Assembly (NCBI GenBank): GCA_007922305.1
Contig: ML677386.1
Span: 12,629,830 to 12,693,829, forward strand
Source of the DNA: Dermatemys mawii
Taxonomy: Eukaryota > Chordata > Testudines > Dermatemydidae
DNA: 64,000 nt
Direction of reading: 5' to 3'
Shown here one piece after another: positions 31,700 through 56,413 of this stretch. Position 1 is the first letter of the stretch; each line of letters begins with the position of its first letter. Below the pieces are notes generated by a model. That model had not been told where the DNA came from. It saw nothing but the letters and a program-made list of their open reading frames with translations, and did not search any database. Position numbers and translations under genes: made by a program.

Positions 31700-31950
31700 A
31701 GGTAATGTAACAACCCCCTTTTAATAATATCTCATTTCCCCAATGTTTTTTACTGAATAACACAATGTAATTTTTTTTACCTTAAGACATTTGAATTCCC
31801 TAGAAAGCTTTTCCCTTTCCTTATCAAAGCCCTCACATACCTATAAAAAGTGACCAATTGTTTCTTCCACATTACATGGTGTACATAGTCTAGCTTTGTG
31901 TCTATTTATTAGAAAATGATTTTTTTAAGCTACAGTGGGAAGTTACTTCT
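31700..31950 (-). pseudogene. LINE ORF2 C-terminal segment with Cys/His box
   Basis: The minus-strand reading RLCTPCNVEETIGHFL, with a further Cys shortly after, keeps the C-x2-C ... H ... C spacing found after the RNase H domain in I/jockey-type ORF2 proteins. It is separated from the rest of ORF2 by the inserted block at 31955-33235, and a stop lies directly after GHFL. Confidence 0.65.
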
Positions 31951-31954
31951 GTTA

Positions 31955-32461
31955 GGATTGCCTCCCCACTCTGAACTTTAGGGTACAGATGTGGGGACCC
32001 GCATGAAAAAAGAAATAACCCCCCCAAGCTTATTTTACCAGCTTGGGTTAAAATGTTTTTTTCCAGAACACAACTTTTTTTGTATTTGGACCTGGTATGC
32101 TGCCACCACCAAACTAGGTCTAGGGTAGTTTAGGACCCTTTTTTTCCTTTTCACTAACTCTCCAAACTTTTTTTTTCCCTGGAAAGCTTGAGAGAATAAA
32201 AAAAACCAAACCTTGCCTGATTTTGCGAGCCGTGCCCGATCCAAAACCAGGACCTTACACAATGGAAAACAAGCAGTCAGCTTCTTAAAAGAAAGATTTT
32301 AATAAAAGAAAAAAAGAAAGGAATAAATCCCTTATAACCATTAATAGAACAGCATCTACCATAATTAACAAAAGGATTTAGAAACCAAACCTCTCCCCCG
32401 AGGCAACTTTTTTCCACTGTTGATATTTTTGCTGAAGCTTACAATATTAAGAAGCACCCAG
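31955..32461. repeat. Tandem unit A (about 507 bp)
   Basis: This is the first copy of the duplicated unit, from GGATTGCCTCCCCACTCTGA to GAAGCACCCAG. It aligns end to end with unit B, with a few short indels. At nearly all sites where the two copies differ by G and A, this copy has the G. Confidence 0.9.
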
Positions 32462-32954
32462 GACTGCCTCCCCACTCTGAACTTTAGGGTACAGATGTGG
32501 GGACCCGTATAAAGAAAAATAACCCCCCCGCAGCTTATTTTACTAGCTTGGGTTAAAATGTTTTTTTCCAAAACACAACTTTTTTTGTATTTGGACCTGG
32601 TATGCTGCCACCACCAAACTAGGTTTAGGGTAGTTTGGGACCCTTTTTTTCCTTTTCACTAACCCCCCAAACTTTTTTTTTCCCTAAAAAGCTTAAGAGA
32701 ATAAAAAACCCAAACCTTGCCTAATTTTGCAAGACGTGCCCAATCCAAAACCAAGATCTTACACAATAAAAAACAAGCAGTAAGCTTCTTAAAAAAAAAA
32801 TTAATAAAAAAGAAAAAGAAAGAAAGAAATCCCTTATAACCATTAATAGAACAGCAATTAACAAAAAAATTTAAAAACCAAACCTCTCCCCCAAGGCAAC
32901 TTTTTTCCACTGTTAATATTTTTGCTGAAGCTTACAATATTAAAAAGCACCCAG
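32462..32954. repeat. Tandem unit B (about 493 bp), G-to-A enriched
   Basis: This is the second copy, from GACTGCCTCCCCACTCTGAA to AAAAGCACCCAG. Compared with unit A it shows about 17-20 G-to-A differences and one in the other direction. There are also about four C-to-T and three T-to-C differences. The affected G is followed by A, or is the first G of a GG pair. Examples are CCTGGAAAG to CCTAAAAAG, CCCGATCC to CCCAATCC and AAAGGATTTAG to AAAAAATTTAA. Confidence 0.9.
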
Positions 32955-33239
32955 CCAACCCTCACCACTAAAAACCCTTTAAGTGATAAAAAGAAGGTAA
33001 ACTTACTGACTACAGTACTTAATAGAATTTATAGTTACAGTAAAAAACATAGCTGTGTTCATCCCATAGCCGAGGTAAACAGAGAAAGACCCCCAAAAAA
33101 CCTAAAACTTAAAATCCTTTGTTTCCTGAGAAATTTTTGATTGGTCACTTGTCCACCTGTTAGGTTACCTTTAGCTTAACCCCTTACAGGTAAACACTAA
33201 TTTTAGGCTACTTCACACTTATAACAACTTCTTTAAACC

Positions 33240-39085: not shown

Positions 39086-39524
39086 AATCACAATGGCAGT
39101 GTATTATACATGCTTTGAAAATGGATAAGAGAACTCACAAGGTGCAAGGCGGTTAGTAATCAGATCTTTACGTCATATCTATGGCACAGCTCCTTTGATA
39201 TACCACAAATAGATTCTGCTTTACCCATCTGACCAACCTAATTTAGTAGCATACAATTCTCTGTGTGGTTTCACGTTGTTAACATGAAAGTAGAACATTT
39301 ATTGGCCTTATAGACACTTCTCAGTACATACATGCTTACATCTATTATTGGAGGAGATTTGATCTGGATATCAGTATTCTGCCATGCCCATATTTTTGGC
39401 ATCCATGACTCACAAACAACATTCACAACTCCGGTATGACATAAGACACATTTTTATGGTTTGTTAGAAACAGGGGTTTCAAAAATTTCATTGAAATGTT
39501 TGTATGATGTTTTTAAAAATGTCA

Positions 39525-39667
39525 GAAGAATGGCCATATTGGATCATACCAAAGGTCCATCCAGCCCAGTATCCTGACTACCAACAGTGGCCAGTGCCAG
39601 GTGCCCTGGAGTGAGTGAATCTAACAGGTAATTATCAAGTGAGTGAATCTAACAGGTAATTATCACG
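39525..39667 (-). mobile_element. CR1 LINE 3' fragment with 28-bp tandem duplication
   Basis: AGAATGGCCATATTGGATCA, ACCAAAGGTCCATCCAGCCC and AGTATCCTGACTACCAACAG are the CR1 3' end in reverse complement. A 28-bp segment (GTGAGTGAATCTAACAGGTA and onward) is repeated at 39611-39638 and 39639-39666 with one mismatch at its end. Confidence 0.85.
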
Positions 39668-40014
39668 TCAATGCAATGCAAATATGTATTCTTTACATGG
39701 AGTCTGAAACATTCATCTGTGGCTCCAAGGTGCTTGTGTGAGTGCTTGAGAACTGGAAAGGGAGGAACCAAAGGGGGAGAAGGAGAGAGTTCATTAGCAA
39801 GGCTTAAAGGGTGTAACTTGGAGTACTGAAATGAAATGTACAAAAGCAAAGTTTAGGCTAACTATTCCTGATGGTGGGATCTGTTAGGCTATGAATAGTC
39901 TTTGAGGCGAGTACCATTGCTGGAGTCATTACAACTAGACTACCCAAATATAGGCTCAGATGGCTCCTGTTAAGTGCATACACTAGCAAGATCTCCTAGA
40001 GCTCTGGGAGCTAT
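39668..40014. other. Unrecognised non-coding sequence
   Basis: No recognised gene or repeat. Confidence 0.4.
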
Positions 40015-40200
40015 TCAGTGGAGATCCAGTGCAGGAGCTGAAGAACCAAGCTGATATATTTGTAGAAGCTTGATGCTTACCAGTTGGGTTAATACATTTT
40101 TAAATAAATGGGAACTTTTCATTACCGGATAGTGTGCATTGCAGGAGTGAAGCCTGAAGGTGACAAATGCATGGACCACCATGGCTAGATCCTTATCCAT
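40015..40200 (-). pseudogene. Possible L2-like LINE reverse-transcriptase C-terminal scrap
   Basis: The minus-strand frame begins MDKDLAMVVHAFVTFRLHSC NAHY, which resembles the L2-group block DLATVVHA.VTSRLDYCNALY. Similarity fades after about 25 residues. The opposite-strand frames at 40167-40490 are not supported as genes. Confidence 0.45.
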
Positions 40201-40795
40201 CAGGTGAGTTTATAGCCTCCTGTCTTGCCATATGGAAGAAGGCATTTATAGCAGCTGTAGACTTCTTGGGTACAGTATCTGTGAAGGATCTAGAAGGGCC
40301 TATAGATGTGCTCAGTTTTGATCGTGGGTGGGCATATCCCCTCAGTATAATGCCTCCTGCAGTGCAGAGTAAAAGGGGCTGCGTGCATTCACTTTTTGAA
40401 AGAGTAGGATGTGGGGGAAGCTGTACTTTCCTCACCCAGTCCTCCCCATCAGCTACTGTTGTTGTGGGTGCTAGATTTGGACACTACTAGAATACAAGGA
40501 ATGCAATTGTACCTGCCTTTATGCAGCAGCAGAGTCTAGGGCAAGGAAGCTACTTTTGTCTTTTTTGCTACATGCTAGCGCATAGTGTGGAGAATCTTTG
40601 GACTACAGGGCACTCAAGATCAGTGGTCCTCAGAATTTGCCACATAGGCTGTGATCAGTTGGCCTGAGCGTGGTTATTGTTAAAGTCTGTATTACGGTCT
40701 CTTTACATTTCCAGAACAGTATAAAGGAAGCTTAATGCAAATGGAAATCAGGCTCGTTAGTCTTTTTTTAAATTGGCTCATGAAATCAAACATGG
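40201..40795. other. Unrecognised non-coding sequence
   Basis: No recognised gene or repeat; it could be further decayed LINE sequence upstream of the L2-like scrap. Confidence 0.35.
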
Positions 40796-41790
40796 GAACA
40801 TAAGAATGGCCATACTGGGTCAAACCAAAGGTCCATCAAGCCCAATATCCTGTCCTCTGACAGTGATCAATGGCAGGTGTCTCAAAAGGAATGAACAGAC
40901 AGGTTATCATCAAGTGATTCATGCCCTTTCACCCAATCTCAGCTTCTGGCAAACAGAGGCTAGGGACGCCATTCCTCCCCATCCTCGCTAATAGGTCCAT
41001 CAATGGCTATTTTCCATGAAACTATCTAGCTCCCTTTTGAATCCCTTTACAGTATTGGCTTTCACAACACCCTATGGCAAGGAGTTCCGGAGATTGACAG
41101 TGTGTTACGTAAAAAAATACTTTCTTGTATTTATTTTAAACCTGTTACCTAGTAATTTCAATGGTGGCCCCTTGTTCTTGTATTATGAGAAGGACACTTC
41201 TTTATTTACTTTCTCTTTACCACTCATGATTTTATAGACCTCTTTCATATCTGCCCCCCCACCCCGCCAGTCGCCTCTTTTTCCAAGCTGAAAAGTCCCA
41301 GTCTTATTATTCTCTCCTCATATGGAAGCCGTTCTATACCCCTAATACTTTTTGTTGCCCTTTTCTGAACCTTTTCCAAGGCCAACATATCTTTTTTAAG
41401 ATGGGGTGACCACATCTGTAAGCAGTATTCAAGGTGTGGGTGTACCATGGATTTATATAGAAGCAATATGATATTTTCTGTCTTGATTCCCAACATTGTT
41501 TGCTTTCTTGATTGCCGCTGCACATTGAGTGAATTATTTCAGAGAACTATCCACCATGATTCCAAGATCTTTCTTGAGTGGTAATAGCTAATTTTGACCC
41601 CATCATTGTATATGTATAGTTAAGATTATGTTTTCCAAGGTGCATCACTTTGCATTTATCAATATTAAATGTCATCTGCCATTTTGTTGGCCAGTCACCC
41701 AGTTTTGTGGGATCCTTTTGTAGCTCTTCGCAGTCTGCCTGAGACTTAACTATCTTGAGTAGTTTTGTATCAACCTTGCACAGTGACACA
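40796..41790 (-). mobile_element. CR1 LINE, 5'-truncated, 3' kilobase
   Basis: The plus strand begins ACATAAGAATGGCCATACTG, the reverse complement of the CR1 3' end. The minus strand carries the end of the reverse transcriptase: DDTKLLKIVKSQADCEELQK, DKCKVMHLGKHNLNYTY, LEYCLQMWSPHLKKDMLALE and KVQKRATKSIRGIERLPYEE. Stops between segments show it is dead. It is cut at 41790, just inside the FADD motif, as expected for a 5'-truncated CR1 insertion. Confidence 0.95.
41245..41790 (-). pseudogene. CR1 reverse-transcriptase C-terminal remnant
   Basis: Two frames (41547-41789 and 41245-41523) together cover about 170 residues from just after the catalytic FADD motif to the end of ORF2, ending RIIRLGLFSLEK. 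A stop or frameshift lies between them. The catalytic core itself is missing because of 5' truncation. Confidence 0.9.
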
Positions 41791-54937: not shown

Positions 54938-55871
54938 CAGGGGTGGGCAAACTGCGGCCCGTGGGCCACGTGTGGCCCACCGGCCATTTTTATCCGGCCT
55001 GCGGGGGCGCAGTGCTGGTGATCCTGCTCTCCACAGCCAGGACGCTGGGTGCCATGGGGCCCTGTGTTCCCGGGCTGGCCGAGCATGGGGAGCTGCGGAG
55101 CCCTGTGCTCCGGGGCCAGGGGCGGGCCGAGCGGAGTGCGGCTCCCCAGCGGGGCCCAGAGCCGCTCGCTGCGGAGAACCGGCACCCCCAGGCCAGGAGG
55201 CTGGGCGGAGAGCCGCTCACTGTGGGGACCCCGGGCCAGGGCGCCGTGAGCTGCGGGATCCCGCAACCCTGGGCTGGGGCACCGGGTGGAGCGCCGCTAG
55301 CCACAGGGCCTCTAGGGCAGAGCGCCTCCAGGCGCAGAACCCCCAGGAGCGCCGAGCCCTGGGGCCCCGTGCCCCCAGGCTGGGGTTCCGGGTGGAGCGT
55401 GACCAGCTGCAGCCCCACACCTGGCTGGAGCGCCGGCTGAACAAGGTAAGCAATGGTGGGGGGGCTTAGGTGGTGCGGTTGGGGGGTGGTGGTGGTTAGG
55501 GTTGGGGGTCTAAGAAGGGGTCGGTCATGGAACAAAGAGTGGGGGGACTTAGAGGGTGGGTTAGGCATGATCGTAGTTAGTGTGTGGGGGTCTCAGGAGG
55601 GCGCAGTCAGGGAAGAAAGAGCAGGGGGGCCTGGGTAGGTTCCTGGGGGGCAGAGTAGTGGGGGTCTCTGGAAGGGGCGATCAAGGGACAAGGAGGAGGG
55701 GTTGGATGGGTTGGGTTTCTGAGGGGGACAGTCAGGGGGCGGGAAGTGAGTGGGGGTTGGATAGGGGGCGCGACCAGGCTGTTTCGGGAGGCACAGACTT
55801 CCCTATCCAGCCCTCCGCACAATTGTGAGCCCCCCATGTGGCCCTCGGGCCAAAACGTTTGCCCACCTCTG
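54938..55871 (-). mobile_element. hAT non-autonomous element, 934 bp, GC-rich interior
   Basis: The ends CAGGGGTGGGCAAACTGC and ACGTTTGCCCACCTCTG are hAT-type inverted repeats. The 8-bp flanks TTCTAGTG (54930-54937) and GGCTAGCA (55872-55879) share the CTAG core of the hAT target preference. The right ~220 bp is the reverse complement of the left part of the copy at 56122-56413, which sets its relative strand. The interior is very GC-rich with degenerate tandem units (about 55155-55440) and then G-rich (55450-55790). Open frames of 165, 165 and 192 residues on three frames reflect the composition; none is a transposase. Confidence 0.85.
55155..55440. repeat. Degenerate GC-rich tandem units inside the hAT element
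   Basis: Units begin near GAGCCGCTCGCTGCGG (55160), GAGCCGCTCACTGTGG (55210), GGAGCGCCGCTAGCCAC (55287) and GGAGCGTGACCAGCTGC (55395). Each is followed by CCCCAGG or CCGGGCC and GGCTGGGG blocks. Spacing is irregular, at roughly 50-110 bp. Confidence 0.6.
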
Positions 55872-56121
55872 GGCTAGCATAATTGTCAAGATTAGGAATT
55901 GCTCACTTTCATTCACCATTACTTTCTATATGGCATCCTAAAAAGGCGAGATGGGTCAGGAAATAGCAACTGGTAATGACATGTTTTTTGATAAACAGTT
56001 TGACTAGTGCATCCTGTGGAGTCACTAGGAGATTCTCTTTGAGGGAGGTATTTATACTCCCAGGTTGCGTTGAGTTTCTTCACGGTTGCTTTTACAAGCC
56101 ATTCAGGGTAAGGATCTAGCT
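55872..56121. other. Unique spacer between two inverted hAT copies
   Basis: About 250 bp without a recognised repeat. The 101-residue minus-strand frame (55919-56224) has no known domain and runs into the second hAT. Confidence 0.5.
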
Positions 56122-56413
56122 CTGGAGTGGGCAAACTTTTTGGCCCAATGGCCACTTGGGGGCTCAAAATTGTGTGGAAGGCCGGGTAGGGAAGATCATG
56201 CCACCCCAAACAGCCTGGCCCCATCCCCTATTCAACCCCCACCCACTTCCCCCTGATTGCCCCCCTCAGAAACCCAACCCATCCAACCCCCGCTCCTTGT
56301 CCCTTGATCCCCGGCTTGGGAGAGCAGGACCACCAACACCATGCTCCCGCGGGCCAGATAAAAATGGCCTGTGGGCCACATGTGGCCCGCAGGCTGCAGT
56401 TTGCCCAGCCCTG
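56122..56413 (+). mobile_element. hAT element, internally deleted, with perfect 8-bp target duplication
   Basis: The element runs from CTGGAGTGGGCAAACTTTTT to GCAGTTTGCCCAGCCCTG. It is flanked by identical octamers ATCTAGCT (56114-56121 and 56414-56421), which fit the hAT target consensus nTCTAGAn. It is 292 bp against 934 bp for its inverted relative. The C-rich interior (CCACCCACTTCCCCCTGATT) pairs with the G-rich part of that copy. Confidence 0.95.

What the first reader, a model, noticed from the sequence alone, without database searches (positions are those of the whole stretch)
31955..32954. Strand-biased G-to-A hypermutation (GA/GG context) between two tandem retroelement units
Aligning unit A (31955-32461) with unit B (32462-32954) by eye gives about 17-20 sites with G in A and A in B, and one in the reverse direction. 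C-to-T (about four) and T-to-C (about three) are few and roughly even. The affected G is followed by A or is the first of a GG pair; I see none before C or T. Examples are CTGGAAAG/CTAAAAAG, CCCGATCC/CCCAATCC, AATGGAAA/AATAAAAA and CCCGAGG/CCCAAGG. On the opposite strand this is deamination of C in TC or CC, the known APOBEC signature on minus-strand retroelement cDNA. Spontaneous CpG decay predicts a different context and no strand bias. DNA editing of reptile retroelements has been proposed, but a single locus where an unedited twin sits directly beside the edited copy would be an unusually clean case.
Basis: partly seen in the sequence, partly recalled or inferred. Interest (0 to 1): 0.87.

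Follow-up and report, generated by a model that had tools for sequence, protein, structure and literature searches.

The report
Two LTRs, one edited afterwards
Two neighbouring repeat copies turn out to be the two ends of a single jumping gene, and the mutations that separate them look like the work of a DNA-editing enzyme on a strand that such enzymes are usually thought to spare.

Summary
In detail: units A and B differ by 22 G-to-A against 3 A-to-G, all before A or G, and at all 22 sites most relatives carry G. The interpretation needs three corrections. (1) A and B are the 3' and 5' LTR of one Ty3/gypsy (Gmr1-like) insertion on the minus strand, flanked by one 5-bp target duplication; the interior is deleted. 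(2) On the element's own strand the changes are C-to-T in TC/CC: plus-strand DNA was edited, not minus-strand cDNA. (3) A is not unedited: minus-strand edits (sense GA-to-AA) are in both LTRs, 19 of 20 shared. Among copies examined, heavy TC-to-T editing (8 or more of ~50 sites) occurs in 11 of 18 5' LTRs and 0 of 19 3' LTRs. In five proviruses it stops at the LTR: 109/248 TC sites in the 5' LTR, 5/330 in 1.5 kb inside. [quoted passage not shown] One of six edited pairs is only weakly asymmetric. Candidate editors are a cluster of APOBEC1-like genes; the enzyme is inferred.

The parts
31945..31949 (.). target-site duplication ACTTC (sense GAAGT), sense 3' side
   Evidence: identical 5 bases on both sides
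31950..32461 (-). 3' LTR lacking about its first 272 nt (unit A); carries minus-strand edits (GA>A 19/31) but hardly any plus-strand edits (TC>T 1/29)
32461..32462 (-). junction of 5' LTR and 3' LTR, 2-bp CT overlap; PBS and interior deleted. Of 40 scored genome matches to the junction only the window's covers it in full
32462..32954 (-). unit B: sense-3' part of the 5' LTR (lacks its last 4-6 nt); 22 plus-strand edits relative to A
32955..33226 (-). sense-5' part (U3) of the same 5' LTR; against the family majority 12 window G>A, 7 C>T and 7 other changes. The whole 5' LTR is 32462-33226: TC>T 29/50, GA>A 26/46
33227..33231 (.). target-site duplication ACTTC, sense 5' side

Best explanation
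The locus is one insertion of a Gmr1-like Ty3/gypsy LTR retrotransposon on the minus strand, reduced to its 5' LTR fused to a truncated 3' LTR. During reverse transcription a TC-preferring DNA cytosine deaminase edited the minus-strand cDNA; those edits were copied into both LTRs. [quoted passage not shown] Those edits appear as sense C-to-T in the 5' LTR only, densest towards the U3 start, and stop at the LTR/interior border. The interior was lost by a deletion with a 2-bp overlap, probably after integration. Shown: structure, strand, context, polarity, 5'-LTR restriction, near absence in the interior next to the PBS. Inferred: the intermediate, the order of events and the enzyme (an APOBEC1-like protein is likeliest).
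For: Same TSD on both sides. Sense strand: seven copies share interior sequence that starts TGG right after the LTR's sense 3' end; three 3' LTRs follow a G-rich tract, one of them with RNase H just before. A/B at shared columns: TC 17 vs 1 of 29, p 7e-6; GA 20 vs 19 of 29, 19 shared. Prediction noted before any 3' LTR was compared: 5' but not 3' LTRs of complete proviruses carry sense C>T. Result, C(3')>T(5') against T(3')>C(5'): 14:0, 25:4, 29:0, 23:13, and 36:3 in a second fused locus; an unedited pair 3:3. Groups: 8 or more of ~50 TC sites edited in 11 of 18 5' and 0 of 19 3' LTRs, p 4e-5; in the subset reached through interior sequence 6 of 11 and 0 of 18, p 0.001 (cut-off chosen after seeing the loads). 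GA load does not differ, p 0.64. Interior of five proviruses: TC>T 5/330, GA>A 127/525. Gradient U3 to U5 .71 to .36 in 12 edited 5' LTRs.
Against: One pair (L088/L089) is only weakly asymmetric (23:13, p 0.13). 7 of 18 5' LTRs are not plus-strand edited, and a rank test of TC load, 5' against 3', gives only p 0.027. L051's 5' LTR also has 14 GA/GG-context G>A that its 3' LTR lacks, which copying from one minus strand does not predict. One element family only. The interior was read for 1.5 kb next to the PBS only, and the site rule drops sites where four or five of the five copies have T. No enzyme was tested.
Confidence: 0.86

Rival explanations
1. Editing after integration: the non-template strand of the transcribed 5' LTR was deaminated in R-loops in the germ line.
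For: Would also hit the sense strand and favour the 5' LTR, which is the promoter. No call tests it directly.
Against: Edits are densest in the sense-5' half of the LTR (U3), fall towards U5, and are nearly absent in the interior that would be transcribed (5/330, all five within 300 columns of the PBS). Context is TC, not the WRC of AID (recalled): 6/466 at C after A or G.
Confidence: 0.06
2. Internal tandem duplication within a solo LTR, with a burst of clustered deamination (kataegis) during its repair.
For: The A/B contrast changes at or near the duplication junction; TC context suits APOBEC kataegis (recalled).
Against: The same contrast exists between 5' and 3' LTRs of proviruses about 6 kb apart that have no duplication. 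The edits continue through 32955-33226, outside the duplicated unit.
Confidence: 0.04
3. One reading: minus-strand cDNA of unit B was edited (APOBEC hypermutation) beside an unedited copy A.
For: G>A excess and GA/GG context on the window strand.
Against: Sense strand is the window minus strand; A carries minus-strand edits too (19 of 31 GA sites).
Confidence: 0.02
4. Ordinary decay (CpG loss) or two subfamilies that differ by inherited sites.
For: Some edited sites are polymorphic in many copies.
Against: CpG sites were left out of the load counts; C after A or G is 0/43 and G before C or T 1/75 in the window's 5' LTR. A and B sit in one insertion and share 18 derived sites.
Confidence: 0.01

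Closest known systems
APOBEC3-type retroviral hypermutation (HIV-1 and others)
   Same: Clustered deamination of single-stranded reverse-transcription DNA in a dinucleotide context; the edits shared by A and B are of this kind.
   Different: The A/B difference lies on the plus strand and in the 5' LTR only. [quoted passage not shown] I recall, unread, that Yu et al. 2004 reported some plus-strand C-to-T in HIV where the plus strand is transiently single-stranded.
Two-strand editing of mouse retroviruses by AID or APOBEC1 (MMTV, F-MLV)
   Same: C-to-T as well as G-to-A in proviruses; mouse APOBEC1 prefers TC (review PMC7760323, passages).
   Different: The passages I saw do not describe a restriction to the 5' LTR.
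APOBEC editing of retroelements outside mammals (lizard LINEs; songbird LTR elements)
   Same: Non-mammalian hosts; APOBEC1 proposed for the lizard (PMC3880073, passages; PMC6523648, passages).
   Different: The lizard screen used C-to-T clusters as negative control and found no significant signal in lizard LTR elements; here the C-to-T signal is real and marks the 5' LTR.
HIV-1 proviruses with asymmetric LTRs
   Same: Intact 5' LTR and a 3' LTR with a deletion that begins upstream and most often ends in U3 (24 of 88; PMC9278108, passages).
   Different: Here the deletion starts inside the last nt of the 5' LTR and takes the PBS, so the published route by plus-strand transfer does not apply as it stands; a deletion after integration is simpler.
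Gmr1-like Ty3/gypsy retrotransposons
   Same: Gag with SCAN domain in a relative; literature ties the SCAN domain to Gmr1-like elements (PMC3424704, PMC4131045, passages).
   Different: The window copy has no coding region left.

Membership tests
DNA cytosine-deaminase (AID/APOBEC) editing | C-to-T in a fixed dinucleotide context, non-CpG | tested here: met
   TC 29/49, CC 3/26, [AG]C 0/42 in the window's 5' LTR; 275/535, 11/282, 6/466 in 11 other edited 5' LTRs
DNA cytosine-deaminase (AID/APOBEC) editing | strand coordination within a copy | tested here: met
   17 vs 1 of 29 TC sites between B and A while GA sites are shared; some copies edited on one strand only, e.g. L046 TC 30/49 GA 2/47, L042 TC 2/50 GA 34/47
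DNA cytosine-deaminase (AID/APOBEC) editing | a competent enzyme in the host | tested here: inconclusive
   13 genome matches to APOBEC_N; 9 of 10 fetched exon stretches hold the H[AV]E...PCxxC motif; activity not testable
minus-strand cDNA hypermutation (APOBEC3 type) | sense G-to-A | tested here: not met
   for the A/B difference: 22 sense C>T, 4 sense G>A. The edits shared by A and B do meet it
AID-type editing | WRC context (recalled) | tested here: not met
   C after A or G: 0/42 window, 6/466 others
Gmr1-like Ty3/gypsy element | LTR TG...CA, short TSD | tested here: met
   5-bp TSD in the window
Gmr1-like Ty3/gypsy element | SCAN domain in gag | tested here: met
   PF02023 E 1.7e-8, above cut-off, in one relative, L040; not in the window, whose interior is gone
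Gmr1-like Ty3/gypsy element | integrase before reverse transcriptase (recalled) | not tested
   only RNase H next to the 3' LTR was seen in L059, which is compatible
solo LTR | single LTR between TSDs | tested here: not met
   1277 bp holding one and two thirds of an LTR of about 786 bp

The most novel reading that the evidence does not exclude
In this host, plus-strand strong-stop DNA is a target in its own right, sometimes nearly the only one (L046 TC 30/49 with GA 2/47; L072 25/47 with 2/42), so a deaminase acts late, after second-strand transfer, perhaps in the nucleus. Because it makes the two LTRs of one provirus diverge at birth, it hinders LTR-LTR recombination. Edited proviruses then resolve more often by short-overlap fusions like this one and L002 (both seen are heavily edited), and their LTR divergence overstates age about two- to threefold.
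Probability: 0.35. Interest if true: 0.82.

Novelty: new variant of a known kind. Interest (0 to 1): 0.7.

Why it matters
The 5' LTR acts as a fossil record of a reverse-transcription intermediate: shared edits are early minus-strand events, 5'-only edits are late plus-strand events, in one molecule. A genome screen for DNA editing used C-to-T clusters as its negative control (PMC3880073, passages); for LTRs of this family that control is itself edited. LTR-LTR divergence, the usual clock for insertions, is inflated here: 8.1% in the window against 3.2% without TC-context C/T and GA/GG-context G/A differences, 7.4% against 2.2% in L051/L063, 2.8% against 0.9% in L036/L059 (the lower figures also drop any ordinary mutations in those contexts). 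It also shows heavy two-strand editing of a Ty3/gypsy element in a genome with a cluster of APOBEC1-like genes.

Tried and rejected
Rejected: CpG decay, AID context, subfamily difference, tandem duplication with kataegis, R-loop editing (see rivals). Considered: that A/B is a transposing variant with a doubled LTR. Of 40 scored genome matches to the junction (181 bases) only the window's covers all of it; two run from 1 to 103, past the junction at 82/83. The same overrun appears in 13 matches to ordinary LTR sequence already fetched and comes from a stretch of imperfect similarity beside the junction. Led nowhere: 3' LTRs were looked for about 6 kb from L058, L046, L042, L016, L031, L041 and from ten further 5' ends; none of these sixteen gave a usable 3' LTR (L064 held 52 bp at its edge, L071 a rearranged piece). 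LTRs dropped before the group counts: L068 (inverted piece), L090 (half), L094 (mostly deleted), L096 (no match, holds N), L071. So three further 5'/3' pairs (L070/L071, L090/L091, L094/L095) were not compared. The 37 copies exclude partial and identical copies and come from searches with A and B, so they favour copies like them; the subset reached through interior sequence was used to check this (its 3' group includes L059, L062 and L063, first fetched by position). The cut-off of 8 TC sites was chosen after seeing the loads. Papers: nothing on 5'-LTR-only plus-strand editing in the titles and abstract starts listed, in a library of openly licensed papers only; Knisbacher and Levanon 2016 is not held.

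Full report
OBSERVATION. Units A (31955-32461) and B (32462-32954) align over 493 columns with 40 mismatches: 22 G in A/A in B, 3 the reverse, 4 C>T, 3 T>C, 8 others. All 22 G stand before A (18) or G (4). The excess is not chance (binomial 1.6e-4; Fisher against C>T 1.9e-6). The held genome (1.81 Gb) supplied relatives. At 22 of 22 sites the majority of 28 other copies has G, likewise of 37 full-length copies. B changed, not A.

STRUCTURE. Most other copies fetched have a single unit plus a 272-bp right part, an LTR of about 786 bp. The window holds 1277 bp from TGTTAGG to TTATAACA, flanked by ACTTC on both sides. Seven relatives share interior sequence to the left of the LTR, which on the minus strand begins TGG directly after the LTR's ...TGACA end, as a primer-binding site does. 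In three copies a second LTR was found 6.0-6.3 kb away, after a G-rich tract and, in L059, after RNase H. Hence the element's sense strand is the window minus strand. Reading that strand: TSD, 5' LTR (33226-32462, lacking its last 4-6 nt), 3' LTR lacking about 272 nt of its start (32461-31950), TSD. The junction has a 2-bp CT overlap inside a stretch of imperfect similarity; of 40 scored genome matches only the window's covers it in full. A gag piece of relative L040 carries a SCAN domain above the Pfam cut-off, which links the family to Gmr1-like Ty3/gypsy elements (PMC3424704 and PMC4131045, passages).

TWO SETS OF EDITS. On the sense strand the A/B differences are C-to-T in TC (18) or CC (4). 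The 18 derived sites shared by A and B are all sense G-to-A, the mark of minus-strand cDNA editing. Counting all sites of each class: 5' LTR TC>T 29/50, CC>T 3/26, C after A or G 0/43, GA>A 26/46, GG>A 5/68, G before C or T 1/75. 3' LTR part: TC>T 1/29, GA>A 19/31. At columns present in both: TC 17 vs 1 of 29 (p 7e-6), GA 20 vs 19 of 29 with 19 shared.

TEST. From this I predicted that complete proviruses carry sense C-to-T in the 5' LTR only. Seven pairs were compared, counting C(3')>T(5') against T(3')>C(5'): window 22:3, L002 36:3, L036/L059 14:0, L040/L062 25:4, L051/L063 29:0, L088/L089 23:13 (p 0.13), L092/L093 3:3 (no editing). Three other candidate pairs were too damaged to compare. 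L002 is a second LTR-LTR fusion with TSD ATACT on both sides. TSDs also match for L036 (4 of 5), L040, L051 and L092/L093; for L088/L089 the 3' flank was not in the fetched stretch. As groups: at least 8 of about 50 TC sites edited in 11 of 18 5' LTRs (up to 40/49) and 0 of 19 3' LTRs (at most 5/50), Fisher 4e-5; the cut-off was chosen after seeing the loads, and the rank test gives p 0.027 because 7 of 18 5' LTRs are unedited or nearly so. Some of the 18 came from a search with B and are biased to edited copies; in the subset reached through interior sequence it is 6 of 11 against 0 of 18, p 0.001. GA-to-AA load does not differ between the groups (p 0.64).

WHERE IT STOPS. In the 1.5 kb inside five proviruses TC>T is 0, 1, 1, 2, 1 of 66, while their 5' LTRs have 40/49, 25/50, 27/50, 2/50, 15/49: pooled 109/248 against 5/330. 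All five interior cases lie in the first 300 columns from the PBS (5/60 there, 0/270 beyond). GA>A in the same interiors is 49, 14, 37, 25, 2 of 105. Within 12 edited 5' LTRs TC>T falls from .71 in the first 130 bp to .36 in the last 140. Nine edited copies not assigned to 5' or 3' have most edits in the sense-5' half; in six of nine the other half has at most 1 of 22 (one site polymorphic in little-edited copies, at 470, left out), against one of eleven 5' LTRs (p 0.017). Four of the nine are solo LTRs by identical TSD and one by 4 of 5; two have unlike flanks and two could not be judged. That is expected if a solo LTR joins the start of an edited 5' LTR to the end of a clean 3' LTR, or if editing itself stops part-way, as in 5' LTR L084.

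MECHANISM. In LTR-element reverse transcription (established knowledge) plus-strand strong-stop DNA copies U3-R-U5, is transferred to the other end, and becomes the plus strand of the 5' LTR; the 3' LTR's plus strand is made later on the minus strand. Minus-strand edits made before that are copied to both LTRs; edits on the strong-stop strand stay in the 5' LTR and cannot enter the interior. U3 is copied last, so it should stay single-stranded longest. These expectations are met above. An exception: L051's 5' LTR has 14 GA/GG-context G-to-A that its 3' LTR lacks.

ENZYME. The context speaks against AID as main editor (6/466 at C after A or G). Genome matches to APOBEC_N (13) include a three-exon gene at C28:35,897,680-35,898,644, five deaminase exons within the next 67 kb, two more on C231, and single exons on C98 and C30. 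Of ten stretches fetched nine hold an H[AV]E...PCxxC motif, not the one on C30. Pfam was run on three: L108 is best matched by APOBEC1; L111 by SNAD4, with APOBEC1 fourth but far above cut-off; the C28 three-exon gene (L113) by NAD1. I call L113 AID-like, the cluster APOBEC1-like, C98 APOBEC2-like and C30 APOBEC4-like partly from recall; Pfam's own AID model did not list L113. [quoted passage not shown] The assignment is inference.

VERDICT. A correct observation with a reversed strand and a misread structure; the true picture is more informative than the claim.

Noticed in passing
L002 607-2011 (G000:C19:10863655-10867160): Second LTR-LTR fusion without interior: 5' LTR lacking its last ~131 nt joined to a 3' LTR lacking its first 38 nt, TSD ATACT; 36 C(3')>T(5'), 33 in TC.
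   Followed up: yes
G000:C28:35897680-35965498 and G000:C231:2964-17290: AID-like gene (label partly recalled) followed by five APOBEC1-like deaminase exons, two more on a small contig: a local expansion.
   Followed up: partly
L051 against L063: 5' LTR has 15 G>A that the 3' LTR lacks, 14 in GA/GG: minus-strand edits made after the LTRs separated, or a recombinant template.
   Followed up: no
L031, L037/L008, L041/L024, L016: Inverted LTR pieces of this family lie next to an LTR.
   Followed up: no
L046, L072, L036: Heavy or moderate plus-strand editing with few minus-strand edits (TC 30/49, 25/47, 15/49; GA 2/47, 2/42, 9/47; L036 interior GA 2/105).
   Followed up: partly
window 55676-56312 and 39523-40917: Inverted repeat arms (202 bp, 83%) and a direct 120-bp repeat (77%), outside this element.
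   Followed up: no
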